A stretch of 64,000 nucleotides of DNA from Castellaniella sp. MT123 (GTDB lineage: Bacteria; Pseudomonadota; Gammaproteobacteria; Burkholderiales; Burkholderiaceae_B). Below are positions 11,253 through 37,384 of the stretch, piece by piece. Position 1 is the stretch's first letter; each line of letters opens with the position of its first letter. The translations under genes were made by a program, and so were the position numbers. The stretch is taken from NCBI RefSeq assembly GCF_039614765.1, contig NZ_CP154879.1, forward strand, positions 434,001-498,000, given 5' to 3'. The notes under the pieces were generated by a model that worked only from the letters and a program-made list of their open reading frames with translations, had not been told where the DNA came from and did no database searches.

Positions 11253-12023
11253 TTATTTGCGAAACCAATGTTTTCGGTGCCAAGCCAGATAGGGCAGGTG
11301 GGCATCTGACAGACTATGCAGTGCTTCGTTCCCGTGCAGCCCCAGTGCTTTACGCTGCAGCAGTTGCAGTGATGGGGATACCTGGATGGCCCCCGAATCC
11401 AGGAACGTTATCCAGCCAGCGTCAAATAGGGCGTCGAAATGCGGTGCCAGCAGAAAGCCGTTGAACACATCCAGACGCTCTTCGTCGGTTTCGCAGCGGG
11501 CCCAAGGCTTGATATGAGAGGCACGTAACAGCTGCGGCTCATCCAGGCTCGTCAGGGCGCAGCGGCCTCCCCAGTACTCGATAAGTGTCGCTCGGAAGAT
11601 ATCTTGTCCGATGCGCTGGCGTACCAGGCGGCTGATTTCTGTGGCATCGGGTGGTGTGTGAGTGCGTTCCCGATAGTGCTGTAAGCCGATTCCGGCCATC
11701 ACCCGAAACATGTCGGCGGCCCGGTCTATACTGTGGTACAGCTTCTCGTAATCTGCGGCACCTTCAAGGCCAACACTCCAGGGTTCAGACTGGATTGATA
11801 CCTGCAATCCGAGTTCTGCCGCAATCTGCCTGCATACACTGGAGTCGGTCAGCCCGAGTCGATAGCCGCCCTGACTGGTGGCCGCTACCCCAAGCGCCTG
11901 CGAGAAGGCCGTGGACCGAAAGACTAGCCATGAACCTTCTTCCTGGGAGCGCAGGTCAAACCCTGCGTCTTGGGCAGCCTTTTCAAGCCGAGTGCGTTCC
12001 AGTAGCGGAATCGGTGAGTTCAT
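11253..12023 (-). CDS. HNH_2-type endonuclease-domain protein
   Basis: The C-terminal half holds an HNH domain: GGRCALTSL (about residues 151-159), RASHIKPWARC (about 166-176) and NGFLLAPHFDALFDAGWITF (about 188-207). The first 100 residues are a separate domain of unknown function. HNH enzymes of this type cut DNA and are common as restriction endonucleases. Its ATG (12023) overlaps the stop of the DUF262 gene (12020) by four bases, so it is the last gene of the defence operon. Whether the split of the gene above reduces its expression cannot be told from sequence; the IS transposase on the same strand may supply transcription. Confidence 0.8.
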   Translation of the reverse strand: MNSPIPLLERTRLEKAAQDAGFDLRSQEEGSWLVFRSTAFSQALGVAATSQGGYRLGLTDSSVCRQIAAELGLQVSIQSEPWSVGLEGAADYEKLYHSIDRAADMFRVMAGIGLQHYRERTHTPPDATEISRLVRQRIGQDIFRATLIEYWGGRCALTSLDEPQLLRASHIKPWARCETDEERLDVFNGFLLAPHFDALFDAGWITFLDSGAIQVSPSLQLLQRKALGLHGNEALHSLSDAHLPYLAWHRKHWFRK

Positions 12024-13583
12024 CGTGCTTGCCTATCCGATGATAGAGTGGTTGCTTCGTGTATTCCGGCTAACTTTTCGTAGCCCCGCCGAATCACTGT
12101 GGCAATCAGTGGGCGCCTTGCTACGAGAAAATCTTCATACGGCAGGTTTTGCCAGCCTTCAGGCAACGCGTGCCAGTTCATCATGTCTTTCAATTCTCTT
12201 TTGGAGAAACGGTCGGCGTATTGCGGCCAGTAGTCCTTGGGGGCGATATCAGAGATGGCCAGGTTGTCATCCCATTCGACCAGGGTGTAGTTTGCTATCT
12301 GGTTTGTTTCCCTGAGTTCACTGATGCCCAGTCCCTTCAGGTAGCTTTTGGGAAATATGTGATGACGTTCCAAAGGCTTCTTGTTCCCAATTGCGGGTGG
12401 GTCCAGGAGGTCCGCGACCTTCTGCTTGGAGAACAGGGCCTTGGCCTCGCACAGTACCAAAGCAGCGTAATAAGCAAAGAGGCTGGGGCCACGACTGGCG
12501 GAAGTGGCAAGTTCGAGGGGCAAGGTCTTTACCCAGTAATCATCGGTGAGGGTCGCAGCCTCGACCTCGGATAGTGCCTTCACAAATTCAGTAGGGTTCC
12601 TGCTGTCTGGCAGCAACTTGAGGTCTGTCTCGTAGCGAGACTCCGGTGAACTGGTATAGCGTCCGGTCAGAAGCGACATGTAGAGCCAGCGGGCTATGGT
12701 TTGCTTGAGCGTATAGGGTTCCACCCCATACTCTGTGCGACCAATCAGATAAAGCTGATAGGCAAAAATCAGCGCCCCTTCGGAGCTGATGTACCGCTGA
12801 TGGCGGTATCCTGCGCTGCGCACGACATTTAGAAAGTCTGCCCAGTGAGTCAGGTTCAGCACCTTGGCTTGGGCTGCTTTCAATTGGCCAAACTGCTTGC
12901 TGCGGAGTTCGGTCGAAAATTCACCGGTTCGCAGGTCTTTGCCGCGCAAGACGGAATACACATGTTCAAGGCGGCCCCTGCGAAAGGCGATGCCTACGCC
13001 TACACGCAGGAGCTGGTCCGGCTCGGGCCGGAAAATCGGATTCAGAGGGCTTGCCCCGTTGCCTGCTGTAGGTTTTCGGGTAGCAATGCTGAACTGCTCG
13101 AGGTCAGTGCGCCCTCCATCCCAATGGACGGACATCAGGGTCAGGATGAAATCCGATTGGTTCAGTTTTTTACCTTCGCTGTTGATACGCACAAAGATGT
13201 CAGCCACTTGCTCTTCATCGGCTGACTGCGTTAGTTCCAGTGCCACAAAGGGATAGTCTTTCAGTCCTGCCAGTCGACCGATAGCCTTGGCGATATGGCG
13301 CTCTTCGTCTTTATCCACTTCGCGCGTCTGACGAAGCCGGTCAAGATACTGAGAAATAGTCTCGTAGGAGTCTTGTGAGAAGACCTCCGAGATGTCGGTA
13401 ATGAATTCAGCCTGCCTCTGCGTGGTGGCATCTGGCACGGCAAATTCCCCTTTCAAGGGGTTGAAGGCAATGCGGATGCGTTCGTGCTCAAAGTTGTCCC
13501 GTAGCACTGGTTCCTTCATCACCACAGCATAGAGTGAGGTCAGGCGTTGCTGCCCATCGACAATCAGTAGCGATGGTGCCTTT

Positions 13584-14959
13584 GGGAGTGTCAGATTTTT
13601 TGTGGGCGGGGCGGTTTGACATCGTTTAATCCCTCGCCTCGGTGAACCGTTCACCGAACAGGATGGCGAACTGATTCATGGCTGCTTTCCACGTATGAAC
13701 CGATCGTGACGGCTTGGCCAGCACGTTTCGCAGCGCCAGCCATAGGAGTTTGACGGCCGCCTCGTCGCTGGGGAATTGGCCCCGGTTCTTGATGATTTTA
13801 CGCAGCTGCCGATTCATGTTCTCGATGGCGTTCGTGGTATAGATCACGCGCCGGATATCGGGTGGGAAGATGAAGAACGGCACCACATGTTCCCAGGCCC
13901 GCTCCCAGGCGGCCACGATCGTCGGATATTTCGTGCCCCAAGGGCCAGCCGCGAAGGCGGCCAGCGCCTCTCTGGCCTGTTGCTCATTGGCGGCGGCATA
14001 GATGGGCTTGAGGGCGGCGGCGACCAACTTACGGTCCTTCCAGCCGGCGTAATCCAGGCTGTTGCGCATCAGATGCACGATGCAGGTCTGCACCGTCGTT
14101 TTCGGGAAGACCACGTTGATGGCCTCGGGCAGGCCCTTTAAACCATCGACCACGGCAATCAGAATGTCCTGGCAGCCCCGGTTCTTGAGCTCGTTGAAGA
14201 CCTTGAGCCAGAACTTCGAACCTTCGGTCTGCTCAATCCACAGCCCCAGCACGTCACGCTCCCCGTTAGCGTCGATCCCCAGGGCCAGGTAGACCGCCTT
14301 GTTGACCACCAGCCCGTCGGTGCGGATCTTCACGCGCAGGGCATCGAAGAACACGACCGGGTACATGCGCTCCAGGGGCCGATTCTGCCAGGCCACCGTC
14401 TCGGTCATGACCTCGTCAGTGACCTCGCTGATGAGCTCGGGCGAGACATCCGTGCCATAGGTCTCAGCCAGGAATGCCTGGATCTCGCGCACGCTCATGC
14501 CTCGGGCGTACAGGGCGATGATGCGTTCATCGAACCCGGCGAAATGGCGCTCATGCTTGGGGATCAAGACCGGCTCGAAGGTACCGTCCCGGTCGCGGGG
14601 CAACTGAACACGCATCGAGCCGTGTTTGGTCAACAGCGTCTTGGCGCTCACGCCGTTGCGTTCGTCGGCTTGTTGGGCCGGCTTGTCTTCGCCGGCACGG
14701 TAGCCAAGGTGGGCGTTCATCTCGCCAGCCATGGCCCGCTCGATCACCGCCTTGCCAAAGGCATCAATCAGATCCTCGACCTCCATGGCCGACATCGGAC
14801 CTTCGACCAGGCCGTCCAGCAAATGCTCAGGCAGCTTCGGAAATCGGGCCGTACGGGCGGCCGCCTGGGCCGCAATAGATGGCTTCTTGTGTTTCACGGG
14901 CATATCCATGATCGTTTTCTCTCATGTTATGCCTCGCCCACAAAATTCTGGACACTCTC
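13584..14959. mobile_element. IS256-family insertion sequence, copy 2 (1376 bp)
   Basis: Same length, terminal sequences and gene layout as the copy at 9388-10763, with its own 8-base target duplication GTGCCTTT at 13576-13583 and 14960-14967. It interrupts the DUF262-HNH gene after about codon 78. The two copies differ throughout, so neither is a recent duplicate of the other. Confidence 0.95.
13626..14909 (-). CDS. IS256-family (Mutator-type) transposase, copy 2
   Basis: The 427-residue product matches copy 1 over its whole length with scattered substitutions (for example AGEMNAHLGYRAGEDKPAQQ against GAEMNVHLGYRPGEDKPAAQ). The triad contexts FFDALRVK, VVDGLKGLPEA and TTNAIENMN are intact. 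It is transcribed in the same direction as the gene it interrupts. Confidence 0.96.
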   Translation of the reverse strand: MDMPVKHKKPSIAAQAAARTARFPKLPEHLLDGLVEGPMSAMEVEDLIDAFGKAVIERAMAGEMNAHLGYRAGEDKPAQQADERNGVSAKTLLTKHGSMRVQLPRDRDGTFEPVLIPKHERHFAGFDERIIALYARGMSVREIQAFLAETYGTDVSPELISEVTDEVMTETVAWQNRPLERMYPVVFFDALRVKIRTDGLVVNKAVYLALGIDANGERDVLGLWIEQTEGSKFWLKVFNELKNRGCQDILIAVVDGLKGLPEAINVVFPKTTVQTCIVHLMRNSLDYAGWKDRKLVAAALKPIYAAANEQQAREALAAFAAGPWGTKYPTIVAAWERAWEHVVPFFIFPPDIRRVIYTTNAIENMNRQLRKIIKNRGQFPSDEAAVKLLWLALRNVLAKPSRSVHTWKAAMNQFAILFGERFTEARD

Positions 14960-15293
14960 GTGCCTTTTGCTTGGAGTCCTGGCCAATCCCCTTAGTTCCG
15001 CTATCGTCGGCGCCGGTTTGCCAGAACAAAAAATAGCCAACCGGGTAGCCTTTGTACATCGAATCAAACAGGTCACGAACCTTGGTGTTGGGCCAGACGA
15101 AGGGGCGTTGGATGTCCGGTAGGCCGATGACTCCCAATTTGATTTGGTTCAGCAACACGCCCAGAGTGTAATTGACTTCTTTGAACAGCCGTTCTTGCAT
15201 GACGTACTCAACCTCGCTTTCGATGTGTCTGATTATGGCAATCTATTATCTGGGTATGCCTTCAGTACCCGGGAGAAACCTTTCCTGTGCGTA

Positions 15294-17285
15294 TTATGCG
15301 AAACCCGGTAATTGGGGGAGCAGCTCCCGCTTGAACAGCAGCTTTTCTTCCTGGCCAGGCTCTAGCTCCAGCACGACATGAGGCTCTCCCTGAAGCGCTG
15401 CCGGTGGCGGTGAGGTCGTCGTCACGATGAACTGGAAGGGGACGCTATCGCCTTTCCCTAACTGAGCTGCGGCTTCGGATGCTGTCAGGAAGAACGACCG
15501 GTACAGGCCCTCACTCAGGTCTGCTTCCCTTGGGCAGTCGTGAACCAGAAAACCAGGATGGTTGCCAGATTCCGACGTTGCCGAGTCAAGTAGACAGACG
15601 ATATCGCCTAGCAGCACTTCCAGTACTTGAATAGCTTCGCCACCACGCGCGACCTCAAATGGACTATGTTCGTTGTCCGGTATGAACCGGGTGTACCCGG
15701 ATTCGCCCAGAAGCCGGGTGGAGATACAGGATGTCAATGCTTTAATAGCTTCCACGCGAGACGATTGTTGCGACTGTCGGTTTGTGATGTCAGCCTGCAG
15801 AACTCCGAGAGATGATTCAAGCTCTTGCTGCTGTTGTCGGGCCCCTATCAAATCCTCGGAGTCACGCCCTTCGGCTCGTTGAACGTGCAATGAATGGAGT
15901 TCATCCCAGGTACTCATTAAAAGGCTACGGGAGCTTTCGCTGGTGGCCGTACGTACCAGCAGCTGGTGCAATTCACTCCGTAATGCGGCAATAGCCTGAC
16001 TTTGTTCCGTAACGTCGGCTGCTATGCTTCCCAAGGCGGACTGACGGATGGACAGCTGCTGTCGAAGCACAGTTTTATTCGCTTGCGATTCTTGCGTGTC
16101 ACGGTACCGAGTCATATTGGTTGACCGTATTTGTTTTTGAACGTGTTCACATGCCAAGAAGTCGATATTTCCGGGTTTGCATCGTTGACCACCCAATCCT
16201 TCCAGGGTAGCGCGTTGGGTTGTCAGTTGTTCATATGCCTCCTCGTTTCCATCCACGAGTGACTGTGCGATGTCCACATCCTTCTCGGCGAGTTGGTGCG
16301 ATTTTTCCAGTTCGACAAGCTGGAGCTGCTTCTGAGCCAGTTGTTTCTCGAATTCTTCGGCCTTCGCTGCCCACAGTTTCTCGTCTTGCTCTGCAGCTTC
16401 CAGAGATGCCTGGAACCGAGACTCGACGGACGTGCCGGTAGTGGTTTGGAATAGCGGTTCGTCTTTGTCGGCCCCCAGCCGGGCCCGTAGCTGATGGTCA
16501 GCCAGGTTAAGCCTGAATGTTGGCTCACGCTCCAGGTCGGAAATGCGTACCTTGACTTGCTCAAGTTCGGTTTGCTTTGAATCGAGCTCCTGAAGCAGTG
16601 CGTGCAACTCTGTATCCACAAGCCCGAGGACCGAGCGAACGAAGAGGGGAGGGTTGCGTCGGGACCTGGCGAAGCCAAGGCCGTCGCTATTTCGCCAATG
16701 GTAGAACCCATCGAAACGGGTCTTTTGGTCCCGCACGCACCAGGCCAAGAGATGGCGCCACTTCAGAGGTTGATTCATGCCTGGCAGTGACTGGGCAGGC
16801 AGACGGCCTATCGAAAACTGTTCCAGCGCGTCCAGGTATCCAGGAAAGTCATTGGGGTGGCTATCTTGTAGAAATGACTCCAGTGCCTCGTTCTGAGCTT
16901 GAATGGCCAGAGAGCGGCCATGGGCGCCGTAGGGACGAAAAACCAGCCATGTGGTTCCGTCTATATGCACTTTTGCTGCCACGCCCCCCTTGGGGAAGCA
17001 GCCTACTGCCTTATCGCGCAGCGTTATGATGTCGGAAGCCTCATCGCCCAGCACATAGCGCATGAGCAGACAAAATGATGTCTTTCCGACGCCGTGGCCT
17101 GCATTGGCCAAGCTGGTAAAGTCATCTGATGCCGGCTCTTTAGCCCAGACAATATTCAAGCCCGGATGCAATGGAATGGGTCGGGTCAGCGCCACAGGCT
17201 CACGGGACTCGACCAGCCAGAGGGTTTCGACCCAAAGTCTGGGCAGTTCGCGTATTGCTGAATGGCCTGCCAGCCAGTCTGTCAT
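15294..17285 (-). CDS. SMC/Rad50-like coiled-coil ATPase of the defence operon
   Basis: This 663-residue protein has a Walker A motif AGHGVGKTSFCLLMRYVLGD (about residues 62-81), a long Gln/Glu/Leu-rich coiled coil (about 230-520) and a C-terminal half-site with HPGFLVHDCPREADLSEG, which fits a Walker B, and QFIVTTTSPP. The overall plan, an ATPase split by coiled coil, matches DUF2326-like and other SMC-type proteins used in defence. In the middle of the coiled coil, about residues 367-380, is C-x9-C-x-H, a possible metal-binding hook. The gene follows the methylase by nine bases. Such proteins sense or thread DNA ends; the role here is inference. Confidence 0.7.
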   Translation of the reverse strand: MTDWLAGHSAIRELPRLWVETLWLVESREPVALTRPIPLHPGLNIVWAKEPASDDFTSLANAGHGVGKTSFCLLMRYVLGDEASDIITLRDKAVGCFPKGGVAAKVHIDGTTWLVFRPYGAHGRSLAIQAQNEALESFLQDSHPNDFPGYLDALEQFSIGRLPAQSLPGMNQPLKWRHLLAWCVRDQKTRFDGFYHWRNSDGLGFARSRRNPPLFVRSVLGLVDTELHALLQELDSKQTELEQVKVRISDLEREPTFRLNLADHQLRARLGADKDEPLFQTTTGTSVESRFQASLEAAEQDEKLWAAKAEEFEKQLAQKQLQLVELEKSHQLAEKDVDIAQSLVDGNEEAYEQLTTQRATLEGLGGQRCKPGNIDFLACEHVQKQIRSTNMTRYRDTQESQANKTVLRQQLSIRQSALGSIAADVTEQSQAIAALRSELHQLLVRTATSESSRSLLMSTWDELHSLHVQRAEGRDSEDLIGARQQQQELESSLGVLQADITNRQSQQSSRVEAIKALTSCISTRLLGESGYTRFIPDNEHSPFEVARGGEAIQVLEVLLGDIVCLLDSATSESGNHPGFLVHDCPREADLSEGLYRSFFLTASEAAAQLGKGDSVPFQFIVTTTSPPPAALQGEPHVVLELEPGQEEKLLFKRELLPQLPGFA

Positions 17286-17294
17286 TGGTGCCTC

Positions 17295-20200
17295 CTACAT
17301 AGTCCCCGTCGGCTTGGGGATGGATGGACGAGTGGCGTCGACTTGCGCTTGTTCTGTCGCCAGGCGCTGCGCTTCGGCCGCCACAAGTAGCCGTGCCATA
17401 TCGGCGTGTTCTGCCAACTCAGTAACGTCCCGAGTAGGCTCACCATTGCCGCGCTTGAACAAGGATTCCTTGCCGTAGATTTCCCGCACTAACGCTGGGG
17501 TTGCCTCAAGACGTTCAAGGATGCGGTGAACTTGGCCTAGCAGCTGCCTCAAACTCGAAGCGTGCTGTTGGCTTAAGAGGCTGGTCAGCAGTGCTGCGTC
17601 AACTGGCCTCAGGTATCGTGTTGCTACCTCTGCGTGTGCCAGAATGGATTGCAGCTCCGGCATTGTGCAGCCTTGGGGATGCTGTGCTACCAGCGCAAGG
17701 ATAAGCCCGGCAAGTTCGGCCTCCTCCCGACTTTGAATCATGCCCTGCCCTGAATAGTGAATGGGCGCTGGTGGTTCGTCGGTCGTGTGGTCTGTTGATG
17801 GAAGTGTGTCCAGCCTGTCCCAAGCCTCCAGGACGAGGCGCTGGGTGCGAAATTCCCCGAATTCACGCATCTCGTTATTCTTGAGGACTCGGAATGTTTC
17901 GCTCGGGTAGTCTTCGCCCATCACGTCGGATGGGTCGAGGATGTATCGCAGTTCGTTGCGGGTCAGGCCGTACAGCCTCGCATAGTAGGCATCCAGTTCG
18001 GCGCGGAGTAGCATGCGTCGTTCGGGATTCCACGGGAAAGGCTCGTCTTCATAGCCAAGGTCTTTCGCCCATGGCTTCATATCGAAACTTGTATAAGTCA
18101 GTTCGAGGACCTTCGGGACGATGAAGCTCAAATGAGCCAATGTGTAACTATCTGGGACCAATACTGGGAACTGCTTGAAGTACCCAAACGTCATGTTTGT
18201 TCCCCCAAGCTTTTGCCTGACTATGAAATCGAATATTAGAGATGACATGTTGGCCAAAAAAGCAGCAGACAGGCTAGGTGTGCCAGCTACGGAAAACAAG
18301 GGCATTGAATGACCGACAGCCACCTGGGGGATAAGTGAAGCGATAAAGGTTCGTTCATCCGTGCTTCGAGCAATATTGCGCCATCCCATCAGCCAATTCC
18401 GCCCCCAGCTCTTATCTGCAAGCCGAGCTTCCACCTCTGACGTATCCACCCAATACCGTGGCGTCACGCTGAAATCCGGGTCCATCTTCTGTTCAACAGC
18501 CACGTCTGCACAGGTACCGTCCGCCCCATAGCTGGCCCAGCGATGGTCGAACTGGTGAATCATCTTGGCTTCGTATAGCGGTAAGCTGCCTGGTCCTGGA
18601 TTGTCGGAGAACAGGTGGCTGTCGTTTGACATATGAATCATTGCCATGAAGCGGATACCCCACGGGTTGACCTCAGTATGCCCTTCATTGACAAGCACCG
18701 GGGCGGCGCGGTAGAGCTTCTTGGTCAACTCGGCGTCGCGTTCCGAGCGAAACATTGGGCAGGTCAGCGTGTTGGGGTTGATGAGTGCGAAATCTTCTGG
18801 CGACAACCGGAAACGGCGACGGGTATCGGCTAGTTGTGACACCTGAGTCGCAAAGCAGACAAACTGCGCTTCTGGAGCTGTCCCCAGGGTGAGCAGACAG
18901 AATTTATAACTGCGGTGGACCGATGGAAAAACGGCCTCCCGATTCTCTATATCGTAAAGGCTGACCAGTTTTCCTTGCTGGGTTTGGGTAGCAAAGAATG
19001 CCTTGGTGCTGTCGTCGGTGGCGATGCCAGTCGGTACGATAAAGCCCGCCCGCCCATTTGGGCTGACCAGTTGGGAGAACGTTTCTGCAAACAAGGCATA
19101 GGTATTGACATCTCCCACACCGGTCAGTGGGTAGCGCCCCGCGTCGTGAGCAAACAGACTGGTGGCTTCGGCCTGTCGCTTGGTCATCAGGAACTCGGCA
19201 TAGAGAGCCTGTTCTGCGCGATTAGGCGGCACCAGCCCCTGGGCAGCTTCGGTTTCCGGGTAGAGCGTGTGCAACAGCATGCCGTCCGCCAGGAGCGCGA
19301 TACGCCGCCCGCGTTCAGCTTTGTGAGGGGCCTCGGCCACGAGCGGGCTGCGTGTGGCAAAGAACTCTTCCTCTTGCAGCTTGATGCGCTCCCAAGGTGG
19401 ATTGCCTAGCAGCACGTCAAAGCCGCCCCTGGCGCGGATTTGCGGAAAAGCCTGCCACCAGTGGAAAGCCTGAGCGCTTGCTGCCACGGTATGGGCCTGC
19501 TCTGCAATGCCCGGCCGTGGGGTACCACCGTTCCGTACCAACCACAGGTCTTGGCTGGTCGGGACTAGGTGCTCCTGTTCGGGTGTCTTGGGAACGGCAA
19601 AAGCTGCTACAAAAAGGTCTGCAGCCAGACGTGCCTGGGACTGTTCCAGTTTGGTTTGGGCTGCCATCCAGGCAGCCCGTTTAGCTTCCACCGCGTCCAA
19701 CGTGTCGTCAGCCAGTTGTTCAACTGCTGCCATGTCCGACTCTTCGGCCAACGCCAGGGAAAATTGTCCGGTCGGAGTTTCTGCGCGCTCAATGGCCTTG
19801 CGGGCTTCGCGGTTGGCCTTCTTCAGGTGCTTGACGACTTCCTTGTCGTCACCCGACAAGGCATTGAAGGCCTTGTCCGGGATGCCGCTATCCAACAGGG
19901 CAGGGTCTAAGATACCCAGCAGCGCATCACCACAGCGTAAGTGCGAATCCAGAAAAGTCAGCGGCCTCTCTGGTGTATAGGCTTCCAGCCAGAGCGCTGT
20001 GCGGGCAAGTTCCACCGCCAATGCGTTTCTATCGACGCCATAGATGCAGCGGGCAATGACCTCACGCAAGGCCAACCGGTAGTCCGACGGCAGAGGATGG
20101 CTGTCTTTGGCATTCAGGCGAGCCACTTCCTCGGCAATCCGGCGCGCAGCAGCCAAAAGGAAATGGCCTGAGCCGCAGGCAGGGTCGCACACACTAAGCG

Positions 20201-21710: not shown

Positions 21711-21726
21711 CTTGTGGTAACTCCTC

Positions 21727-24573
21727 TCAGGCCGGAATCAGGACAAAAACGCCCATGATGTCCACGGGCAGGCTGGGACTCACACGGTACTCACCGCGTC
21801 CTTGGGCAGCTTCCCGCAAGCGGCGATGGTCTTCGAGTAGCTGCTGTGCCCGCTTGTGCGCCAACGCCTCCAGCGCAGGCTGCAGGCTGTCCAGTTGCTC
21901 AATCGCGCGCGTGATGTGTTGGTTGCGTAGCGGTGGCGGCATGTTGCGGGTGGGTTCGACATGCATCAGGCTGCGAGCTGCTTCATCATTCAGAAGTGGC
22001 GCATTTCCCTGGGCGGGGACACCCACGGCCAGTGTTTCTTCGCATAGCATCAGCCGGGACTGACCTCGATGGCTGACGGTGAGCTGGTGTCGCAAGCGCA
22101 GTAGCAATATCGTTGTGCGTAGCTGTACCGCATCGGTGAAAATGGCGCCCGCACGTGCCACGGCGTCCAGGGTAAGCGTGCTGTCCGATGAGCCGTCTAG
22201 CGCTGCTTCTAGCAGGTAATCCGCAAGGATGGCAATCAGCGGGTGGGTGCGGTGAATGAAGGTCGCGCCTTGCGCGGCAGGTTGATGAAAATCGACCCGA
22301 ATAGATTTGCTCAGGCCTTCGGCATGCAGCCGTTCTCGGACTGCCCCCGGTAGGCTTTCAGTGTGTAATTTCCAATGGGGAGAGCCACCTTTGGTGGTGG
22401 CTTCCAGTGGTGCACCCAACTGTTCGGTGGCCCGCTTGGCAAAGCGCTCCACATCATCTTCGCCACCCAGCACTGCCAGGGTTTTCTTCCATTCCGGCAA
22501 TACATCGTCGGGCTTTAGGCGTCGCTGGGCAAAGAGCGTACGGTTTTTGGCGGCCTTGTCTCGCGCTGACTGCCACGCTGTTTCGATGGCCTGTTCTGGG
22601 TCGCCGAAGTCCAACCCCAACTGTGGGGCGGTGCGAGTGGTCGTGCCTTTGCGGAGTAGCACGGCACCGACCAGCGCCTGGGTCAGCTTGCCATCGTCGT
22701 CGGGCATGGGTACCAGAACTCCAAGCTCCTTGCGGATGCGTTCGGCTTTTCGCAGGATGACCTGAAGTACCGCGCCATCGACCGGGTTGTCTTGACCAAA
22801 GAGCATGGTGCTGCGTACCTCTCGGGCTTTCTGGCCAAATCGGTCTACACGGCCTTCGCGTTGCTCATGCCTGGTTGGATTCCATGACAGGTCGTAGTGC
22901 ACCACTGCTGTAAACAGGTTCTGCAGGTTGATGCCTTCCGATAGGCAGTCGGTTGCTACCAGAATGCGCTGGTCGGCATCGGCCATGGCTTCTACTGCGG
23001 CTTCGCGTTCGGAAGGGGCCATTTCCCCTGTCACGGCAATCACCTGATGGTTGCGGAATGTCAGGCGTAACTGTTCGGCCACGTAATGGGCGGTGGCGAT
23101 GTAACGGCAAAAGACCACAGGCTGAAAGCCGTCACCTGTAAGCTCTCGCAGATGCTCGATAAGCCGCTTGAGCTTGGGGTCCTTTGAACTGCCGGTAAGC
23201 GCAGCGGCCCGCTCGGTCAATGCCGTCAGCCAGTCGCTGTCTTCCGTGTTGGCGGCAGGCTCGATATCCTGGGTAGAGAGCGCGTCGTTGACACCATCCA
23301 GCACTCGGTCGCGACCATTCTCATCGGCTTCTTCGAGCGTGAGGGCGGTTTCGCCGGGGGAGCCCTCGGAGAGGCTGCTGCTCTGCAGGCGCGTGCGTAA
23401 AGCATTCACCGCTGCCGCTGGCGAAGACGAAATGCAGCGCAACAAGGCCAGCGCGGCCCACCAGGACATACGCTGGCGCATCAAGTCCAGACCTTCGGTT
23501 CGTTCGACCAGTGCCCGAGCATAGGACAGCACGTCGTCAAAGAGCTTGCCCCAGTCGCCAGTAAGCTTATAGGTGATTTCCGTTGAATAACGTTGAGGAA
23601 ACACGCTGTTGTCGTGCCACTCGTCGATATCTGGTCGGCGGCGTTGTACGAAATGGTTCGCCAGCTGCTCGCGCAAAGGACGTCTGCCGTCTGCCGGTGC
23701 GTCCTTGAGTTCCTTGAACTCTGGTTGCAAAAGCCCTAGCAAGTTGTAGAACGCTTCATCGTCGCCCGAGTGTGGGGTGGCGGTTAGCAAAATCATGTGC
23801 CGCTCGGTATCGTCTGCAAGGCCTTGAAGCAGGGCGTAGCGCTGTTGCTTGCCCTGGCCGCTATGGGTGCAGGTATGTGCCTCGTCGACAATCACGCATT
23901 CTGGGCAGGCCCGCTGGAACTCATCACGCCGTCGGTCGGACTTGATGTAGTCCAGGCTCACCACCGTAAACGGGTAGGCCTCGAAGATGGACTGATTGGC
24001 AGGTAGTCCACGTTCAAGCCGTGCAACGGTCGTGTTGCGGACCACCACAGCCTGGATGTGGAAGCGGTCGTGTAGTTCTTGCTGCCATTGCTCACATAAG
24101 TGCGGTGGGCACAGAACCGCTATGCGGGAAATCTCGCCTCGGTCCAGCAATTCGCGCACAATGAGGGCTGCCTCAATGGTCTTGCCGATACCTACGTCAT
24201 CGGCAATCAGCAGGCGCACCACCTCTTGCTTGAGCGCCATGAGCAGGGGTACAAGCTGGTACGCCCTGGGCTCTACGGCGATACTGCCAAAACTGCGAAA
24301 CGGACCCGCACCGGAGCGTAGCTTAAGCTGCAGCGCGTCGAGCAACAGTTGTCCCGCCGCGAAGTTTGCAGCCTGTTCCACCGTGGGCGTCGGGAAGCTC
24401 GCTGGCCCCACAGTGCCGAGTTCGATGGGCAGGTAGATGAGTGTGGCATCATCCTCTGCAGCTCCCAGCGGTCGCAGATGCAGCGTGTCCTCGGAAGATT
24501 CTGGCAGCACTATCCATTCGCGGCCGCGCGCAGAGACGAGACTTCCTGGTTGGAATGAAGTTTGCAGAGTCAT
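21727..24573 (-). CDS. SNF2-type helicase (DrmD-like)
   Basis: This 948-residue protein has the Snf2 ATPase motifs IADDVGIGKTIEAALIVREL (about residues 122-141), VDEAHTC (about 227-233) and LLTATPHSGDD, and a helicase C domain with DCLSEGINLQN and HEQREGRVDRFGQ (about 545-585). The segment RQRMSWWAALALLRCISSSP and the long C-terminal region are what I recall from DrmD, the SNF2 helicase of class 1 DISARM. Its ATG overlaps the stop of the giant helicase gene by four bases. The enzyme would translocate on double-stranded DNA using ATP. The assignment to DrmD rather than a general RapA-like enzyme is by pattern and by the neighbouring large methylase. Confidence 0.8.
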   Translation of the reverse strand: MTLQTSFQPGSLVSARGREWIVLPESSEDTLHLRPLGAAEDDATLIYLPIELGTVGPASFPTPTVEQAANFAAGQLLLDALQLKLRSGAGPFRSFGSIAVEPRAYQLVPLLMALKQEVVRLLIADDVGIGKTIEAALIVRELLDRGEISRIAVLCPPHLCEQWQQELHDRFHIQAVVVRNTTVARLERGLPANQSIFEAYPFTVVSLDYIKSDRRRDEFQRACPECVIVDEAHTCTHSGQGKQQRYALLQGLADDTERHMILLTATPHSGDDEAFYNLLGLLQPEFKELKDAPADGRRPLREQLANHFVQRRRPDIDEWHDNSVFPQRYSTEITYKLTGDWGKLFDDVLSYARALVERTEGLDLMRQRMSWWAALALLRCISSSPAAAVNALRTRLQSSSLSEGSPGETALTLEEADENGRDRVLDGVNDALSTQDIEPAANTEDSDWLTALTERAAALTGSSKDPKLKRLIEHLRELTGDGFQPVVFCRYIATAHYVAEQLRLTFRNHQVIAVTGEMAPSEREAAVEAMADADQRILVATDCLSEGINLQNLFTAVVHYDLSWNPTRHEQREGRVDRFGQKAREVRSTMLFGQDNPVDGAVLQVILRKAERIRKELGVLVPMPDDDGKLTQALVGAVLLRKGTTTRTAPQLGLDFGDPEQAIETAWQSARDKAAKNRTLFAQRRLKPDDVLPEWKKTLAVLGGEDDVERFAKRATEQLGAPLEATTKGGSPHWKLHTESLPGAVRERLHAEGLSKSIRVDFHQPAAQGATFIHRTHPLIAILADYLLEAALDGSSDSTLTLDAVARAGAIFTDAVQLRTTILLLRLRHQLTVSHRGQSRLMLCEETLAVGVPAQGNAPLLNDEAARSLMHVEPTRNMPPPLRNQHITRAIEQLDSLQPALEALAHKRAQQLLEDHRRLREAAQGRGEYRVSPSLPVDIMGVFVLIPA

Positions 24574-27500
24574 GCATGGGTTCCTGCGACACGGCCGGGA
24601 CCAAATAGGTCGGCATGTGTCTTGAAAATGTCGGCCCAGCGGGCGCTGTCCTTGGGGAATCGGACCACATAGTAACCAGCGGCTTCCAGGCAGTTGGTGA
24701 TGGCCTGGTCTTTTGCGGATTGTGCGGCGGCATCATGATGAGGGCCGTCAATGAAAACAGCGGCTTTCCAGTCAGCATAAAAAAAGTCTGCTGATGTTTT
24801 GCAGCGGTCGATAGTGTGTTGCCCTTCATCAGGTTGGCGATAGCCGTGCTGCTGAACGTATTCGAGCCATGCCTGCTCCAGAGAACTCCCTGCAACGCGC
24901 TCAAGCTCGGCCTGCTGTTCGCTGGGGCTACGTCCGAAGGTGCCGACCGAGCTGTGGGAGCGCGTCAGCTGGCACAGAATGTCCAATGCCTTTCCGTCAT
25001 TGTCTGCATCCCTACGGTCGATATGGAGATGGTCGGGCTGGTTGTAGTACGACAGCAGGCACCGGTAGCAGCCTGCCTCACATAGGGGTTGGCCGTCAGC
25101 TTCTCGGTCTTCGGTGAGATGTGCTGCGTCCCAGCGACCATCCTTGGGACTTTGGTAATGCATGATGGAGAGGGCCTCTGTCGCCACAAGCGCCAGAGCC
25201 TCGGGCTCGGTGGCAATGCGGGTCAGCACTCCGGCACCGCCTTCGGCAGATTCATAAAAGAGGATGGAACGGCGTAGGTCTGCTTTGGGCAGGGGTTCAG
25301 CCATCAGTTCACTTTCTTCGAGCTGGTATACGGCTTCCATGCCGCGCTTGAGCGCGTATTGCAGGGTCGCCATGGTCTTGATATCCAGCGCTTCAAGCGG
25401 ACGCACGATAAGAACGTTGCGCCGGTCTTCCACATACGGGACGATGCGCTGGGGCGGTGTCTTGTCTGGGGGCGTATCGGTATCAGGCTCGTCCTCTTCA
25501 TTGGCGCCGCCCATCCAGTGGCCCGTGACCGGATTGATTTTGAACCCAAGCAGACTTTTTTCCTTACGCCGACGCCAACCCAGGTTCATGCGCCAGACCG
25601 TGGCGGACTGCCCGTACTGCAGCTCCAAGACCGGGGTGTCAGCATCCATGAGCAGTGCCCGCATGACATGGAGTTTGCCCTCCTGCTCGCCAAACTGAAT
25701 GGTCGTCTGCATTTCGTAGCCCTGACGCACCCGTTCTTCCTCGTTGGCGCTGATGCGCTCCGCCCGCTTTGTGGACACGTTTTCGATGCGGTAGAGGTTT
25801 TGGACGGCCACAGCCTCGGTCAGCGGTGCATTGCAGGAGACACAGCGGTCGGCATCACGCTGATTGCGGAAATGTCCATAGCCGCATGCTGGGCAGATGC
25901 GCGCCACGTCGGTGGTCAGTTTTGCACCGACGGAGACTTGGTCGTTGGCACCAATCGAGAGCATGGCACGTGTGACGCGATACTGGCTGCCTTCGTGATA
26001 GATGAGGCTATAGGGCCCAAACTCCGAGAGCGCCAGGAAACGCGGGCGTGATAAAAAGTTCTCCCTGCCAATCTTGCCGCGGCGTGCCGGTATGTAGGCC
26101 ATGAGCGGCAGGCGTGGGAAATTGTAGCCAGGCAAGAAACCCTGGCTTGCCAGATAGCGATAGGTATAAAAATCCGAATTGGCCGAGCCGGATTCTTGCA
26201 GCAGCAATGACTGCTGGCGGAATGCTTCGTCGTGGCGCTGCTTGGCGTCGCGGCGCTCTCGTTCGCTGGCGGCTGGGTTGTTCATCACCTTCTGGTTGAT
26301 TTCCATCTGGCGCTTGGTTGCGGAAAACAGGTCGCGCCAGCGGTCTAGTGCGTTATCAAAGGAGGCGAAGGCTTGACTAAAGACCTGCTCTGCAAAGCGC
26401 TCGGAGTACCAGGGGGCTTTCTGGGGCGTCAATTCGCCTTCCAGCATGGTCAGTATTCTCAGGCCTCGTCCGTGAGCACGTTTTTGTGGTGCGTCGGCGT
26501 CCATCTGCTGCCGATAGTCCTCGGTGAGTGCCGCCTCGGGGTCGCTCATGTCCAGCAAGCCGCGCACACTGTTATCGAGCTTCTTGCCTGTTTCCGCAAG
26601 CCAGACGGCATGCAGGTGGCTCTGTATGAGTTCACGGTTTGCGAGGTCAAGCGTGGGCGGATTGACTTGACCATGCACCATGCGCACGGGGTCGCGGAAG
26701 AAATATTGGTCATGCGGTGATTGCGCTGCACAATATGTGATGACCAGGGCCGGTTGGCCCGCTCGGCCCGCTCGGCCGCTACGTTGTGCATAGTTGGCTG
26801 GTGTTGGCGGGACATTGCGCATGTACACCGTGTTCAATGACGCGATGTCTACGCCGAGTTCCATTGTCGGCGAACAAAAGAGCACGGGCAGCCAGTCTAG
26901 CGGCCTGCCAGTTGCTACCAACCAGTCCGCACGGTCTTTTTCGGTAAAGCGGAAACGTGCTTCGCGCTCAAGTCGGTCATCTTGTTCCACCTGAGCTGTG
27001 TGTTCTCGGGCTTCGAAATCAAAGAGGCGGTGAACAGGGTTCGAGAGCAGTCCGGCGATGTTACGGTACAGGCTGCGGAAAAACGAGTTGTCATGCGCAC
27101 CACGACTGCTCTGGCCGTCACCCAGCGTCCAGAGCAGGCTGGTGCCATTCAACTGATAGCCTGTCACACCAAATTCGGTCTCTTCCGATACGACCAAGCC
27201 ATAAGTCTTGGCGGCGTTCAGTAACGCACGAATGATGGCTTCGCACTGCTCGTCCTTGATTTTTCCGGCGTGCGGGTTGTCGCTGCCATCGGCCTCACGC
27301 CAGGTGCTGGCCCTTTTTATCGCTTTGCCCAAATTTGAACGAGGGCTACCAGAGACCAGGTAATCAACATTACGGCGGTCTTCGTCTCGTGGACGTGCGC
27401 TGGTGATGAACCAGTTAGATGGGGCGGGCGTTTCGTCTTCAGTAAATCCCCAGGGTTCACGCAGATTGGCGTAGCTCGAGGTTTTGAGCCGGTCGAGCTC

Positions 27501-29891
27501 GGTGCGGTCAAGATAGCGTGTGGCTAGGCATAGTCCTTGGCGCATCGCATCGAAAAGGGCGATGAGCAGGCGCTTTCTGACGTCGGGAGATGCGCTTTGC
27601 AGCACTGCGGGGATGTCTGCAGGCCAGGATTCCGCGTCAGTAGCGAGGTCGTCGAGGTCCTGATACGCAATACGAAGCAGACCTAGTTGTTCCAGGTTGG
27701 GGTTGTTGAAGCGCCATCCGTGGCGCAGGTCAAAGTACGCCCGATAGCCCAGGATGGTGCGCATGATGTCTTGTACCTGGCGTCGTGCGTTCCCCTTGAT
27801 GTCGGGGTCTTGCATGTATTCGGCACGCACTCCATGGTCATCACGGTCAAAGCCCAGGGCCTTGAAGATGGCATCTGATACCTGGGCCTCGCTAAGGCTG
27901 CCACCTGCCTGGTCAACGGCGGAAAAGAGTGCGGCACGAAGCAACACGACTTGGAGGAAATCGTTAAAGTGGCCAACCTGAAGTGCCGCATCCTGTCGGT
28001 TGTCCGTGAAGCCCAACACCTTTTTGGCTTCTGCTTTCAGTTGCGTGTCGTCTTCATAGAGATAGCGTAGCGCTGAGAGCGTCAACATCGTGGTGGCGGA
28101 GCTGCGCCCTTCGCCTGACAGCCCCATGAGCCTCAGCGACTCCTTGCCCGCCGTGCTGTGCGTCACACCACAACGCAGACAGAATCCGAAGTTGCCAGGC
28201 ACAAACCAGCCAGGCGTACCATCGGCAGCGAGCCGGCCTTCCGTATTGATGCGAATGTGGCGAGGTTGGCGTTTCTTGTAGTTGGACTTGAGCTTCAGGT
28301 CGCCATTGGCGCGTGGTTCAACCCACGTTTCCGGATACAGGTCGAGGGTGTCCTCCCAGATGCCCGTAGTATCCGGCATGAAGTAACCACTTCGGGTGTC
28401 TTCATCATCGTGATTGCGCTCGTCAATGCCGCGAGGGCTGAACGTACGCCCGGTGCTGCCGTTCTCATCCCAGACTGGTGCATACTCTTGCCCGCATTCG
28501 CGACAAAAGTGCAGGGTATACAGGCGTCGGGAGCGGTCGCCTGGTACGAACTGCGCACCTTCGAGGGTCAGATAACGTTTGCCTTCAGGTTCCAGTGTCC
28601 CATACACCTTGCTGCCGCCGGAGATGAATTGGTGCAGTTTGAACGCAAAAAGGCTGCGCCCCCCTTCTTCCACTGGTTTGTCAGTCGTGTGGTACGCGAG
28701 CAGAAGAAAGTCAGCCAATGTCCGGCGTGCCAATTCTTCATCGGTCTGTCCATCGTGGGCTAACTGTCGGGCAGCGGCCTCGAGAGTCATAGGCTGTGCC
28801 CTATGCCATTTGCCCTCATTGCGAGTCAGACCCAGTGTCAGTTCCACCCAGATGGCCAGAGGGTGCCGGGCAAGCTCTGCAAATGTGGCTGAGCGCGGCA
28901 GTTCCTTCTGAACTGCCTGCGTAAGTTCTGGCCGTATGTGTTCTATCAGAAGGTCTTCGGGAGTAACGCGCTGAAGTGTCTCGGTGATGACGTTAGCTGC
29001 CGAGAGGGCCTGGCCAAAGAGCCGACCAGCCACTTCAGCCACCTTGGTGTTTTTTTCTTTTTCACTGCCCTCGGTGGCCATGGTGGCCGAGGTGCCGATG
29101 CATTGCAGCTCATCTGCCAACGCCTCACGTACACGGCGTACCAGCAGAGCCACATCGGCCCCCTGGCGGCCGCGATACGTGTGCAGTTCATCTAGTACTA
29201 GAAAGCGCAGCCCCTTGGCGTGGCGGATGACAGCCTTGTCTTTGTCATCCTGGCGCGTCATCAGGAGCTCGAGCATCATGAAGTTGGTGAGCAGGATGTC
29301 TGGTGGGTTCTTCGCCAGGTACAGGCGTTCTTCCTCACTTTCCTGGCCCGTATAGCGACCGTACGTAACAGGTGGATGGTCGCCATAGTCAGAGAGGAAC
29401 TTGCCAAGCTCCTCCAGTTGGCTATTGGCCAACGCGTTCATGGGATAGATGACGATGGCCCGGGTCCGTTTCTCGGGGTCTGCCATCTTGGCCTTGAGGA
29501 TGGCATCCACCAGCGGGATGAAATAAGCAAGGGACTTGCCCGACCCTGTTCCGGTCGTGAGCACATAGCTTTGACCGTTCTGCGCGAAAGTTATGGCCTC
29601 TTGCTGGTGCTTGAAGAGCTTGAGCGAAACGCCGGGGTTCGTCGCAGTCTTGCCCGCCCGGAAAATCTGCGCACATTCGGTGTGCAGTACGCCTTGAGCA
29701 ACCAAGTCTTCAATTGTGTTGCCAGTCTGAAAGTTCGGGTTGACCTGCACCAATGGGGCAGGCCAGTAGTGGCCCGATTCGTACGCTGCGTCGACGTAGC
29801 GGCGGATGTCAGGCGCATGGATGCGAGTGAAGCTGCGCGTGAACGCTGCGTAGTCAGAGACGAGCTTTGTGCGGAATTCAAAAACGTCCAT
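24570..29891 (-). CDS. Giant DEAD/DEAH helicase with DUF1998 and nuclease-like C-terminus (DruE-like / DrmA-DrmB-like)
   Basis: From the ATG at 29891 (with AGGAAGGACAAAGGAAG upstream) the protein has 1773 residues. An open extension to 29993 lacks a ribosome site. The helicase motifs are TGTGSGKSLAYFIPLVD (about 112-128), LDELHTYRGRQG (about 235-246), GTSATMA, SPTMELGVDI and QRSGRAGRAGQP (about 1040). Cysteine pairs CRECG, CLRCG, CPACG and CVSC suggest zinc knuckles. DUF1998 (MZB) lies near 1570-1625 with ESAEGGAGVL and GCYRCLLSYYNQPDH. The last 100 residues (SLEQAWLEYVQQHGY, SADFFYADWKAAVFIDGPHH) resemble a Vsr/DUF559-type nuclease. DruE of Druantia joins helicase and DUF1998 in one chain; DISARM splits them into DrmA and DrmB. 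It is the first gene of the operon. Confidence 0.85.
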   Translation of the reverse strand: MDVFEFRTKLVSDYAAFTRSFTRIHAPDIRRYVDAAYESGHYWPAPLVQVNPNFQTGNTIEDLVAQGVLHTECAQIFRAGKTATNPGVSLKLFKHQQEAITFAQNGQSYVLTTGTGSGKSLAYFIPLVDAILKAKMADPEKRTRAIVIYPMNALANSQLEELGKFLSDYGDHPPVTYGRYTGQESEEERLYLAKNPPDILLTNFMMLELLMTRQDDKDKAVIRHAKGLRFLVLDELHTYRGRQGADVALLVRRVREALADELQCIGTSATMATEGSEKEKNTKVAEVAGRLFGQALSAANVITETLQRVTPEDLLIEHIRPELTQAVQKELPRSATFAELARHPLAIWVELTLGLTRNEGKWHRAQPMTLEAAARQLAHDGQTDEELARRTLADFLLLAYHTTDKPVEEGGRSLFAFKLHQFISGGSKVYGTLEPEGKRYLTLEGAQFVPGDRSRRLYTLHFCRECGQEYAPVWDENGSTGRTFSPRGIDERNHDDEDTRSGYFMPDTTGIWEDTLDLYPETWVEPRANGDLKLKSNYKKRQPRHIRINTEGRLAADGTPGWFVPGNFGFCLRCGVTHSTAGKESLRLMGLSGEGRSSATTMLTLSALRYLYEDDTQLKAEAKKVLGFTDNRQDAALQVGHFNDFLQVVLLRAALFSAVDQAGGSLSEAQVSDAIFKALGFDRDDHGVRAEYMQDPDIKGNARRQVQDIMRTILGYRAYFDLRHGWRFNNPNLEQLGLLRIAYQDLDDLATDAESWPADIPAVLQSASPDVRKRLLIALFDAMRQGLCLATRYLDRTELDRLKTSSYANLREPWGFTEDETPAPSNWFITSARPRDEDRRNVDYLVSGSPRSNLGKAIKRASTWREADGSDNPHAGKIKDEQCEAIIRALLNAAKTYGLVVSEETEFGVTGYQLNGTSLLWTLGDGQSSRGAHDNSFFRSLYRNIAGLLSNPVHRLFDFEAREHTAQVEQDDRLEREARFRFTEKDRADWLVATGRPLDWLPVLFCSPTMELGVDIASLNTVYMRNVPPTPANYAQRSGRAGRAGQPALVITYCAAQSPHDQYFFRDPVRMVHGQVNPPTLDLANRELIQSHLHAVWLAETGKKLDNSVRGLLDMSDPEAALTEDYRQQMDADAPQKRAHGRGLRILTMLEGELTPQKAPWYSERFAEQVFSQAFASFDNALDRWRDLFSATKRQMEINQKVMNNPAASERERRDAKQRHDEAFRQQSLLLQESGSANSDFYTYRYLASQGFLPGYNFPRLPLMAYIPARRGKIGRENFLSRPRFLALSEFGPYSLIYHEGSQYRVTRAMLSIGANDQVSVGAKLTTDVARICPACGYGHFRNQRDADRCVSCNAPLTEAVAVQNLYRIENVSTKRAERISANEEERVRQGYEMQTTIQFGEQEGKLHVMRALLMDADTPVLELQYGQSATVWRMNLGWRRRKEKSLLGFKINPVTGHWMGGANEEDEPDTDTPPDKTPPQRIVPYVEDRRNVLIVRPLEALDIKTMATLQYALKRGMEAVYQLEESELMAEPLPKADLRRSILFYESAEGGAGVLTRIATEPEALALVATEALSIMHYQSPKDGRWDAAHLTEDREADGQPLCEAGCYRCLLSYYNQPDHLHIDRRDADNDGKALDILCQLTRSHSSVGTFGRSPSEQQAELERVAGSSLEQAWLEYVQQHGYRQPDEGQHTIDRCKTSADFFYADWKAAVFIDGPHHDAAAQSAKDQAITNCLEAAGYYVVRFPKDSARWADIFKTHADLFGPGRVAGTHA

Positions 29892-30269
29892 TCTCTTCCT
29901 TTGTCCTTCCTGTTCACGGCTGAGATTGCTCGGGCGGACACATTCTGTGACGTGTGGCGCTCCCCACGATTCTACCCGCATCGAGAGGGACAACTCACCG
30001 TGGGCGTGAGGGCGGGGCCAGCCGGGTGAGCGCTTGAGGTCAAAAGTCTGTCGCTATACGAAGGGCGAAGACACTCCTTATCCTCCCCATTTTTCGAGCG
30101 AAATCCGATACCTGCATACCCACCATCCTGTAACCAAAAGGGTGGTACGGCTAACGGCCGTGAATCATCTGATAAATCAGATGGTTATGAATCCTGCAGG
30201 TACTTCGTTCCGGCGTCTTTACTTGCTTCGCAGACGCCGCAAAAAGGAGGAAAGGCATACCGGAAGAAA
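29892..30269. promoter_or_regulatory. Divergent promoter region of the island
   Basis: About 380 bases between the defence operon (leftward) and the recombinase-initiator pair (rightward). It contains the palindrome CATCTGAT-AA-ATCAGATG (30166-30183) and the longer-range pair TACCTGCA (30109-30116) and TGCAGGTA (30195-30202), which frame it. No clear -35/-10 pair was picked out. The repeats may be operators shared by both directions. Confidence 0.45.
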
Positions 30270-37365: not shown

Positions 37366-37384
37366 AAACCGAATTTAGAAAGCA

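What the first reader, a model, noticed from the sequence alone, without database searches (positions are those of the whole stretch)
11253..29891. Six-gene DISARM/Druantia-like hybrid defence operon
Six minus-strand genes run with gaps of 16 and 9 bases, one gap of 93, and two 4-base overlaps: giant DUF1998 helicase, SNF2 helicase, 1471-residue adenine methylase, SMC-like ATPase, DUF262-HNH, HNH_2. Class 1 DISARM has an SNF2 helicase (DrmD) and large methylase (DrmMI) but separate DrmA, DrmB and a phospholipase-type DrmC. Druantia has the one-chain helicase-DUF1998 (DruE) without this partner set. Here the two plans are mixed and three further proteins with nuclease or SMC architecture are added, with no DrmC, PglZ or BrxC. 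Seen: order, overlaps and motifs. Inferred: that they act as one system.
Basis: partly seen in the sequence, partly recalled or inferred. Interest (0 to 1): 0.8.

Follow-up and report, generated by a model that had tools for sequence, protein, structure and literature searches.

The report
Phage-defence operon with plug-in DNA sensor
A mobile island in a bacterial genome carries a recently named phage-defence system whose DNA-marking enzyme has an extra tail that was seen only where an SMC-like sensor gene comes next, and the same tail-plus-sensor pair turns up in two other defence systems, which suggests a transferable sensor module.

Summary
The six genes are real. The first three (one-chain YprA/DUF1998 helicase with a C-terminal Vsr-type nuclease region, SNF2 helicase, adenine methylase) are not a new DISARM/Druantia hybrid: they match ARMADA Type I, named in a September 2025 preprint. 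The last three are separable. The HNH gene usually closes the operon. The DUF262 gene is one of many alternative cargos in the slot before it, and here it is cut in two by an IS256-family insertion.

What looks new is the fourth gene, a LmuB (Lamassu)-like SMC ATPase, coupled to a 102-243-residue C-terminal tail on the methylase. The tail lies just upstream in 95 of 97 SMC loci (the other two contigs lack that sequence) and in none of 43 stretches without SMC, 20 of which hold a whole methylase end. The SMC label switches at least 6 times on the helicase tree, and tail divergence follows the SMC more than the methylase core. Homologous tails precede the same SMC in two DISARM class 1 and two type III R-M loci. 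I infer a portable docking domain plus DNA-structure sensor. The operon sits between 45-bp repeats at tRNA-Met. Docking and function are untested.

The parts
24570..29993 (-). YprA-family helicase, DEAD + Helicase_C + MZB/DUF1998 on one chain with a C-terminal DUF559/Vsr-type region; ARMADA Type I first gene (start probably 29891)
21727..24573 (-). SNF2/RapA-like helicase (BrxH/DrmD/DpdE-type)
17295..21710 (-). DrmMI/PglX/Eco57I-type adenine-N6 methyltransferase, 1,471 aa
17295..17813 (-). C-terminal tail of the methylase (about 173 aa), in the loci compared present only when the SMC-like gene follows; inferred SMC-docking domain
15294..17285 (-). LmuB/Rad50-like SMC ATPase, 663 aa, two invariant cysteines (369, 379) between the coiled-coil helices, C/S at the presumed Walker B catalytic position
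14922..15200 (-). N-terminal piece of a DUF262/GmrSD_N gene (HEC-05/PDC-M55C-like), cut by an insertion sequence
13584..14959 (-). IS256-family insertion sequence (transposase 13626-14909) inside the DUF262 gene; 8-bp target duplications 13576-13583 and 14960-14967
12020..13654 (-). Remainder of the DUF262 gene (open frame begins within the insertion sequence)
11253..12023 (-). HNH endonuclease, VcaM4I-type HNH domain with a possibly MotA-like N-terminal domain; usual last gene of the operon
36300..37385 (-). Tyrosine integrase next to tRNA-Met
37424..37468 (.). 45-bp direct repeat (3' part of tRNA-Met 37424-37500), one inferred end of the island
9311..9355 (.). Identical 45-bp direct repeat, other inferred end of the ~28.1-kb island

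Best explanation
This is an ARMADA Type I anti-phage operon (helicase-nuclease, SNF2 translocase, adenine methylase) carrying a plug-in sensor: an undescribed C-terminal domain of 102-243 residues on the methylase plus a LmuB/Rad50-like SMC ATPase encoded right behind it. Proposed mechanism: the methylase marks host DNA as self; the SNF2 and YprA motors act on unmarked phage DNA and the Vsr-type nuclease cuts it. In ARMADA Type II all genes are needed and protection is non-abortive; marking and cutting are inference. The tail holds the SMC on the complex; the SMC clamps DNA ends or folded replication intermediates, as has been proposed for LmuB, and licenses attack. The HNH protein is a second nuclease, perhaps for modified DNA. 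The slot between SMC and HNH carries exchangeable standalone defence genes; here DUF262, broken by an IS256-family element. Shown: anatomy, tail-SMC linkage, host switching, flanking repeats. Inferred: docking, sensing, licensing, mobility.
For: Trio = ARMADA I layout; the window helicase groups with ARMADA I-like rows, apart from rows with ARMADA II, Druantia-like, MrfA-size and DrmA layouts. Residues after the conserved methylase end block: 102-243 in 79 of 79 SMC-adjacent loci measured (75 distinct) against -10 to 8 in 11 of 11 measured loci without SMC. Tail profile just upstream in 95 of 97 SMC loci and in none of 43 other stretches, 20 of these with a whole methylase end. In 399 genomes of the order the tail profile hits 5, all before SMC. 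At least 6 label changes on starred branches among 28 ARMADA I rows. Partial rank correlation tail-SMC given core 0.74 (0 of 999 permutations as high), tail-core given SMC 0.30. Tails linked by profile comparison across ARMADA I, DISARM and type III. LmuB link: profiles for 9 of 10 members, 7 of the top 8 Foldseek hits. Methylase-to-SMC gap <=60 bp in 70 of 71 measured.
Against: No interaction or phage test. The window SMC itself scores only E 0.015 against LmuB models; sequence search of PDB gave only coiled-coil-region matches; Foldseek TM-scores to LmuB are 0.35-0.45 and the top hit is a YydD-YydB model. The tail shows no similarity to LmuC and no known family, so its role rests on position and linkage. 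Tail homology is a chain: 4 of 10 group pairs score above 97%, the other 6 at most 6.4%. Neighbouring genes inherited together could give part of the correlation. 72 of the 97 SMC loci supplied tails to the profiles later searched. The SMC and helicase trees contain long branches.
Confidence: 0.68

Rival explanations
1. Plain ARMADA Type I followed by unrelated embedded cargo: the SMC gene is one more swappable defence gene and the methylase tail is a by-product (fusion or specificity domain) with no partner role.
For: The slot does hold many standalone defence genes, and SMC is dispensable: the 11 SMC-less loci measured have neither tail nor SMC.
Against: Tail found in every SMC locus with upstream sequence and in no stretch without SMC, also in DISARM and type III hosts; tail divergence tracks SMC better than its own protein core. 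I did not test whether any other slot gene is tied to a host-protein domain.
Confidence: 0.2
2. The SMC-like gene plus HNH gene form a Lamassu-like system of its own (LmuB-like sensor, HNH effector) merely placed behind ARMADA.
For: LmuB-like fold; HNH follows SMC in 45 of 75; an SMC+HNH pair without the trio in the 20 kb upstream exists in Paracoccus pBEN, L026.
Against: HNH also occurs without SMC (L109, L112, L114-L118) and SMC without HNH (30 of 75, 13 of them with 10 kb downstream). No LmuA or LmuC among the listed PADLOC hits of the window proteins, whereas 7 of 8 Lamassu-like LmuB loci have a 160-194-aa gene directly before LmuB. The pBEN pair keeps a tail remnant upstream.
Confidence: 0.12
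3. A new hybrid of DISARM and Druantia that acts as one six-gene system.
For: All six genes are co-directional with short gaps; the exact order recurs in two Massilia genomes.
Against: The trio is a named class (PMC12458937); each of the last three genes is optional; the DUF262 gene is broken here.
Confidence: 0.05

Closest known systems
ARMADA Type I (Bell et al. 2025 preprint, PMC12458937)
   Same: YprA - SNF2 (BrxHII-like) - PglX-like methylase order; one-chain DUF1998; C-terminal Vsr-type nuclease
   Different: Main text names no SMC, no methylase tail, and HNH only in a reference; supplements and figure drawings not seen
Lamassu (LmuA-LmuC-LmuB)
   Same: Rad50-type SMC of about 650 aa with apex cysteines and an altered Walker B catalytic residue; a 160-240-aa element directly before it
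   Different: No LmuA or LmuC seen; the element is fused to a methylase or Res and not detectably similar to LmuC; Walker B position is C/S, not the Q reported for LmuB (PMC10586767 passages); the SMC lies outside eight LmuB rows
DISARM class 1 (DrmD, DrmMI, DrmA, DrmB)
   Same: SNF2 helicase and large adenine methylase; two DISARM loci (L100, L102) carry the same tail+SMC
   Different: DrmA and DrmB are separate genes there; here one chain
Druantia DruE
   Same: Best PADLOC models for the helicase are DruE1-DruE4
   Different: No Druantia partner seen; helicase falls outside Druantia-like rows
VcaM4I-type HNH restriction endonuclease (PDB 6yex)
   Same: HNH domain, profile E 4.7e-38 and Foldseek E 1.5e-9
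   Different: N-terminal domain most resembles the T4 MotA C-terminal domain (prob 0.99, TM 0.6 by target, but E 0.066); that VcaM4I's reader is EVE-like is recalled
Hma-embedded candidates and guilt-by-embedding (Payne et al. 2024, not held; known from passages)
   Same: Standalone defence genes embedded inside another system's operon; the window DUF262 C-part matches a HEC-05 model (8.3e-22)
   Different: Host operon here is ARMADA I; slot lies between SMC (or methylase) and HNH

Membership tests
ARMADA Type I | Gene order YprA, BrxHII-like, PglX-like | tested here: met
   definition read
ARMADA Type I | Helicase and OB-CON-DUF1998 on one chain | tested here: met
   DEAD 128-306, Helicase_C 992-1079, MZB 1544-1646 in one ORF
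ARMADA Type I | C-terminal Vsr-type nuclease on the helicase | tested here: met
   PF04480 DUF559 at 1735-1782, E 1.9e-4, 21.7 bits against a cut-off of 20.6; that DUF559 is Vsr-like is recalled, active residues not tested
ARMADA Type I | Helicase in the Type I clade | tested here: inconclusive
   Own tree separates it from ARMADA II-layout rows with full support; the paper's reference protein was not available
ARMADA Type I | Anti-phage activity | not testable with these tools
   the experiments read were on Type II
ARMADA Type II | SNF2-methylase-YprA order with a GajB-like helicase last | tested here: not met
   layouts that fit Type II seen in L131-L135
DISARM class 1 | Separate DrmA and DrmB | tested here: not met
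   one chain; NCBIfam DrmD 356 of 610 bits needed
Druantia | DruE with DruH or other Druantia partners | tested here: not met
   no such partner among the listed PADLOC hits of the 18 window proteins scanned
Lamassu | LmuB-like SMC ATPase | tested here: met
   9 of 10 family members match LmuB PDLC03859, best 1.3e-22; the window copy reaches only 0.015 against one LmuB model; fold match with TM 0.35-0.45
Lamassu | LmuA effector and LmuC middle component | tested here: not met
   none among the listed PADLOC hits; tail vs LmuC-like profile hhalign probability at most 0.3%
BREX | PglZ and BrxC | tested here: not met
   none among the listed hits of 18 window proteins
GmrSD/DUF262 type IV | Intact DUF262-HNH protein | tested here: not met
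   gene split by an IS256-family element

The most novel reading that the evidence does not exclude
A portable immune sensor: an undescribed docking domain grafted onto the C-terminus of a host enzyme plus a LmuB-like SMC gene, moved as one unit among at least three different restriction/defence systems (ARMADA I, DISARM class 1, type III R-M), giving methylation-based immunity a second, DNA-structure-based trigger.
Probability: 0.5. Interest if true: 0.8.

Novelty: new variant of a known kind. Interest (0 to 1): 0.64.

Why it matters
If the tail+SMC unit is a transferable sensor, defence systems that differ in their cutting machinery share a common add-on for detecting phage DNA structure, and the tail gives a direct handle to find and test it. 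It would also suggest what an SMC does next to R-M-like systems, and link Lamassu-type sensing to methylation-based immunity.

Tried and rejected
Reading the six genes as one obligatory hybrid was rejected because each of the last three is optional. Hma was considered (helicase, methylase, ATPase): the SNF2 matches HmaA (9e-59) but DpdE and DrmD models better, and the window SMC has no HmaC hit (for the other members the list was cut at 25 of 39 families). Dpd was considered because the SNF2's best PADLOC model is DpdE PDLC02853 (2.1e-214); NCBIfam DpdE stays far below cut-off (214 of 500 bits). The tail as LmuC was tested and not supported. A first regular-expression measure of tail length missed 45 loci and was replaced by a profile. 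Sequence search of PDB with the SMC profile gave only coiled-coil-region matches. The viral scan gave two loci. Rows dropped: from the tail-length counts L119 and L120 (SMC-less, end block not recognised), L113 and L143 (methylase cut), and SMC loci L017, L024, L026, L057, L066, L076, L078, L081, L086, L088, L092, L099-L102, L105, L106 (end block not recognised, or no upstream sequence); L087 was set apart because a gene lies between. Literature: no description of the tail+SMC pairing was found in searches. Krishnan et al. 2020 and Payne et al. 2024 are not held and were not read, and the Bell et al. supplements could not be opened, so a prior description there is possible.
Full report
Observation. 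Six minus-strand genes between 11253 and 29993 are present as described. Pfam and PADLOC confirm a one-chain YprA/DUF1998 helicase, an SNF2 helicase, an Eco57I/DrmMI-type adenine methylase, a DUF262 gene in two pieces and an HNH_2 protein; the SMC-like protein has no hit at E 0.01. The DUF262 gene is interrupted by an IS256-family element with 8-bp target duplications on both sides; 13 related transposase matches lie in this genome, five identical in protein, this copy included. The operon is the main cargo of an inferred ~28.1-kb island bounded by exact 45-bp repeats, one being the 3' part of tRNA-Met beside a tyrosine integrase. No empty site was looked for.

What the trio is. A 2025 preprint names ARMADA. 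Type I has the YprA homolog first, then a BrxHII-like helicase, then a PglX-like methylase, with a Vsr-type nuclease on the helicase C-terminus (PMC12458937: outline and abstract, parts 1-3 of 8 of the text, sections 11, 12, 14 and 26, and passages). The window fits each of these points, the nuclease only by a weak DUF559 match. In a tree of 32 helicases the window falls among 19 ARMADA I-like rows (SH-aLRT 100), apart from four ARMADA II-layout rows, Druantia-like rows, MrfA-size rows and DrmA. The comparison labels are mine, from gene layout and size. The tree is a quick one with long branches, and one Druantia III-layout row (Dru3_G290) did not group with the others.

Recurrence. The SMC alignment found 241 relatives in public genomes; the best 80 gave 75 distinct loci. 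Of the 75, 57 show the whole trio upstream by similarity (some with split methylase frames, such as L052, L079, L090, L104), 9 are cut by the contig end but show the methylase (one also the SNF2), and 9 are other: two DISARM class 1 loci (L102 by DrmA and DrmB profiles, L100 by similarity to it and with a RES-type gene between SMC and DrmA), one type III R-M locus (L101), two SNF2-methylase loci without a YprA hit (L076, L081, same assembly), and four contigs that begin within 1.3 kb of the SMC (L057, L066, L078, L092). A viral contig, L105, also has a type III Res followed by SMC. HNH follows in 45 of 75: within 400 bp in 21, further off in 24; of the 30 without it, 13 have 10 kb of downstream sequence. 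The exact six-gene order with nothing else in the slot is in 2 of 75 (L032, L033); DUF262 shares the slot with other genes in L034, L040, L044 and L048, and appears as fragments in L043 and L045.

The slot. Representatives of the inserted genes match known or candidate standalone defences: DRT1a reverse transcriptase, PDC-S39, HEC-03B and an RNA ligase-like gene, Mokosh-like kinase-helicase and PLD genes, RES/HEPN, Schlafen AlbA, and UvrD-type helicases; a UvrD-McrB-McrC-like set follows SMC in L013. Embedding of defence genes inside other systems is known (passages; BREX backup effectors, PMC12839542 abstract and passages).

Without SMC. Searching with the helicase, not the SMC, gave 17 of 399 genomes of the order and 9 of 369 of the class at E 1e-100, the window's own included. 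I fetched 20 stretches plus the earlier G294 locus; four places at contig ends were not fetched. SMC is present in six (L107, L108, L110, L111, L123, G294), absent in eleven (L109, L112, L114-L122), and L113, L124, L125 and L126 are uninformative. HNH is present after the methylase in L109, L112 and L114-L118 although SMC is not. Among the 15 informative loci of the order, the window included, HNH is in 12 and SMC in 6. The trio also stands alone (L121, L122; L140, L141).

The tail. L114 and L115, both SMC-less, are near-copies. Loci not measured are listed under Tried and rejected. Five tail profiles find the tail just upstream of SMC in 95 of 97 SMC loci (92 distinct; L017=L101 is the fifth pair); the two misses, L057 and L106, have no sequence there. 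None of 43 stretches without SMC has a tail; 20 of these hold a whole methylase C-terminus (13 ARMADA I, 5 ARMADA II-layout, 2 DISARM), the rest lack a methylase end (L143, listed as whole, ends four bases from the contig end and is not counted). The profiles were built from 73 tails, the window and 72 of these loci; 23 of the 95 hits are outside that set, 18 of them distinct loci not otherwise in it. In an open search of 399 genomes of the order a tail profile hit five, all in the methylase before SMC; a sixth SMC-bearing genome known from that sample (G682) was not recovered. The Paracoccus pBEN SMC+HNH pair, which lacks the trio, still has a 76-aa tail remnant upstream (E 1.2e-27).

Switching and co-travel. 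On a quick tree of 28 ARMADA I helicases plus four outgroup rows the SMC label needs 8 changes, at least 6 forced by well supported branches. G294 and G603 share 76% helicase and about 80% SNF2 identity; their methylases align (69%) to the last residue of the SMC-less one, while the other runs on for 173 residues. Over 58 rows, rank correlations of distances are tail-SMC 0.83, tail-core 0.61, SMC-core 0.58; partial tail-SMC given core 0.74 (0 of 999 permutations as high), tail-core given SMC 0.30. The stop of the methylase or Res lies within 60 bp of the SMC frame in 70 of the 71 loci measured of 75.

Other hosts. Profile-profile comparison links the five tail groups only as a chain: Burk-GamA 99.1%, GamA-GamC 99.1, GamA-Delta 97.1, Delta-Alpha 97.7, the other six pairs at most 6.4%. 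It ties them to the C-termini of type III Res L017 (Delta 99.1%, 5.5e-19), Res L105 (Alpha 98.5%), and DISARM methylases L102 (Delta 97.9%) and L100 (Delta 94.6%); 15 controls reach at most 0.9%. Of six DISARM-like stretches without SMC, two had a comparable methylase: L148's, 52% identical to L102's, ends 30 residues after the shared part where L102 has 201 more, and L150's (in two frames) ends at about the same point. The L105 Res runs 193 residues past its match to a nearly complete REase_III profile. On the SMC tree these SMCs form one side of a branch (98/95) against eight LmuB rows, and the DISARM and type III hosts each appear at two separate places among ARMADA hosts; several branches are long, and rows whose contig ends before the helicase (such as L071 and L103) were labelled ARMADA I.

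The SMC. Nine of ten members match a LmuB profile (best 1.3e-22), the window copy only another LmuB model at 0.015. The predicted model (mean pLDDT 86.4) resembles solved Lamassu SMC chains (7 of the top 8 Foldseek hits, E 6e-13 to 4e-10, TM 0.35-0.45; the top hit is a YydD-YydB model); a sequence search of PDB gave only coiled-coil-region matches. Two cysteines are invariant in 44 of 44 rows, in a low-confidence loop between the coiled-coil helices, and the residue after the presumed Walker B aspartate is C (22) or S (22) (motif assignment recalled). LmuB is described as ~650 aa, Rad50-like, often with a zinc hook and an altered catalytic residue, and may sense DNA secondary structure (PMC10586767, passages). 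In 7 of 8 Lamassu-like loci fetched (of 9 places) a 160-194-aa gene directly precedes LmuB; the tail occupies the same place but shows no similarity to it. No Pfam family matches more than 2 of 46 tails (the window's only EutK_C at 0.0076, under its cut-off) and no PADLOC family any.

The HNH protein. Model pLDDT 92.7. The C-terminal part matches VcaM4I; the N-terminal part resembles the T4 MotA C-terminal domain (prob 0.99, but E 0.066), so a DNA-reading role is a suggestion only.

Verdict. The core is a known class; the tail+SMC unit is, as far as my searches reach, an undescribed variant and a candidate transferable module. Prior mention in works I could not open remains possible.

Noticed in passing
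30270-33074 (+): A 642-aa protein with weak tyrosine-recombinase similarity followed by a Rep3-like initiator; relatives of the first lie beside several ARMADA+SMC loci (L043, L044, L045, L048), hinting at a recurrent mobile carrier.
   Followed up: partly
6489-9354 (+): Two serine recombinases at and outside the island's lower repeat (the second overlaps the repeat), with a Replic_Relax gene at 4521-5357, suggesting a second element next door.
   Followed up: no
9430-10713 (-): Second IS256-family copy just inside the island end, with its own 8-bp duplication; 13 transposase matches in the genome.
   Followed up: partly
L017/L101 and L105: Type III Mod-Res systems whose Res carries the tail and is followed by the LmuB-like SMC; L105 is a viral contig.
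   Followed up: yes
L100, L102: DISARM class 1 loci with the SMC gene between the methylase and DrmA (a RES-type gene also intervenes in L100).
   Followed up: yes
L076, L081: SNF2-methylase(tail)-SMC without a YprA hit within the fetched 10 kb upstream: possibly a fourth host system.
   Followed up: partly
21727-24573 (-): PADLOC model DpdE PDLC02853 matches this ARMADA SNF2 over nearly its full length (2.1e-214), while NCBIfam DpdE is far below cut-off: the model may be an ARMADA helicase filed under Dpd.
   Followed up: no
L072, L074, L077, L110, L111, L112: Distant DUF262-like genes sit after, not before, the HNH gene.
   Followed up: no
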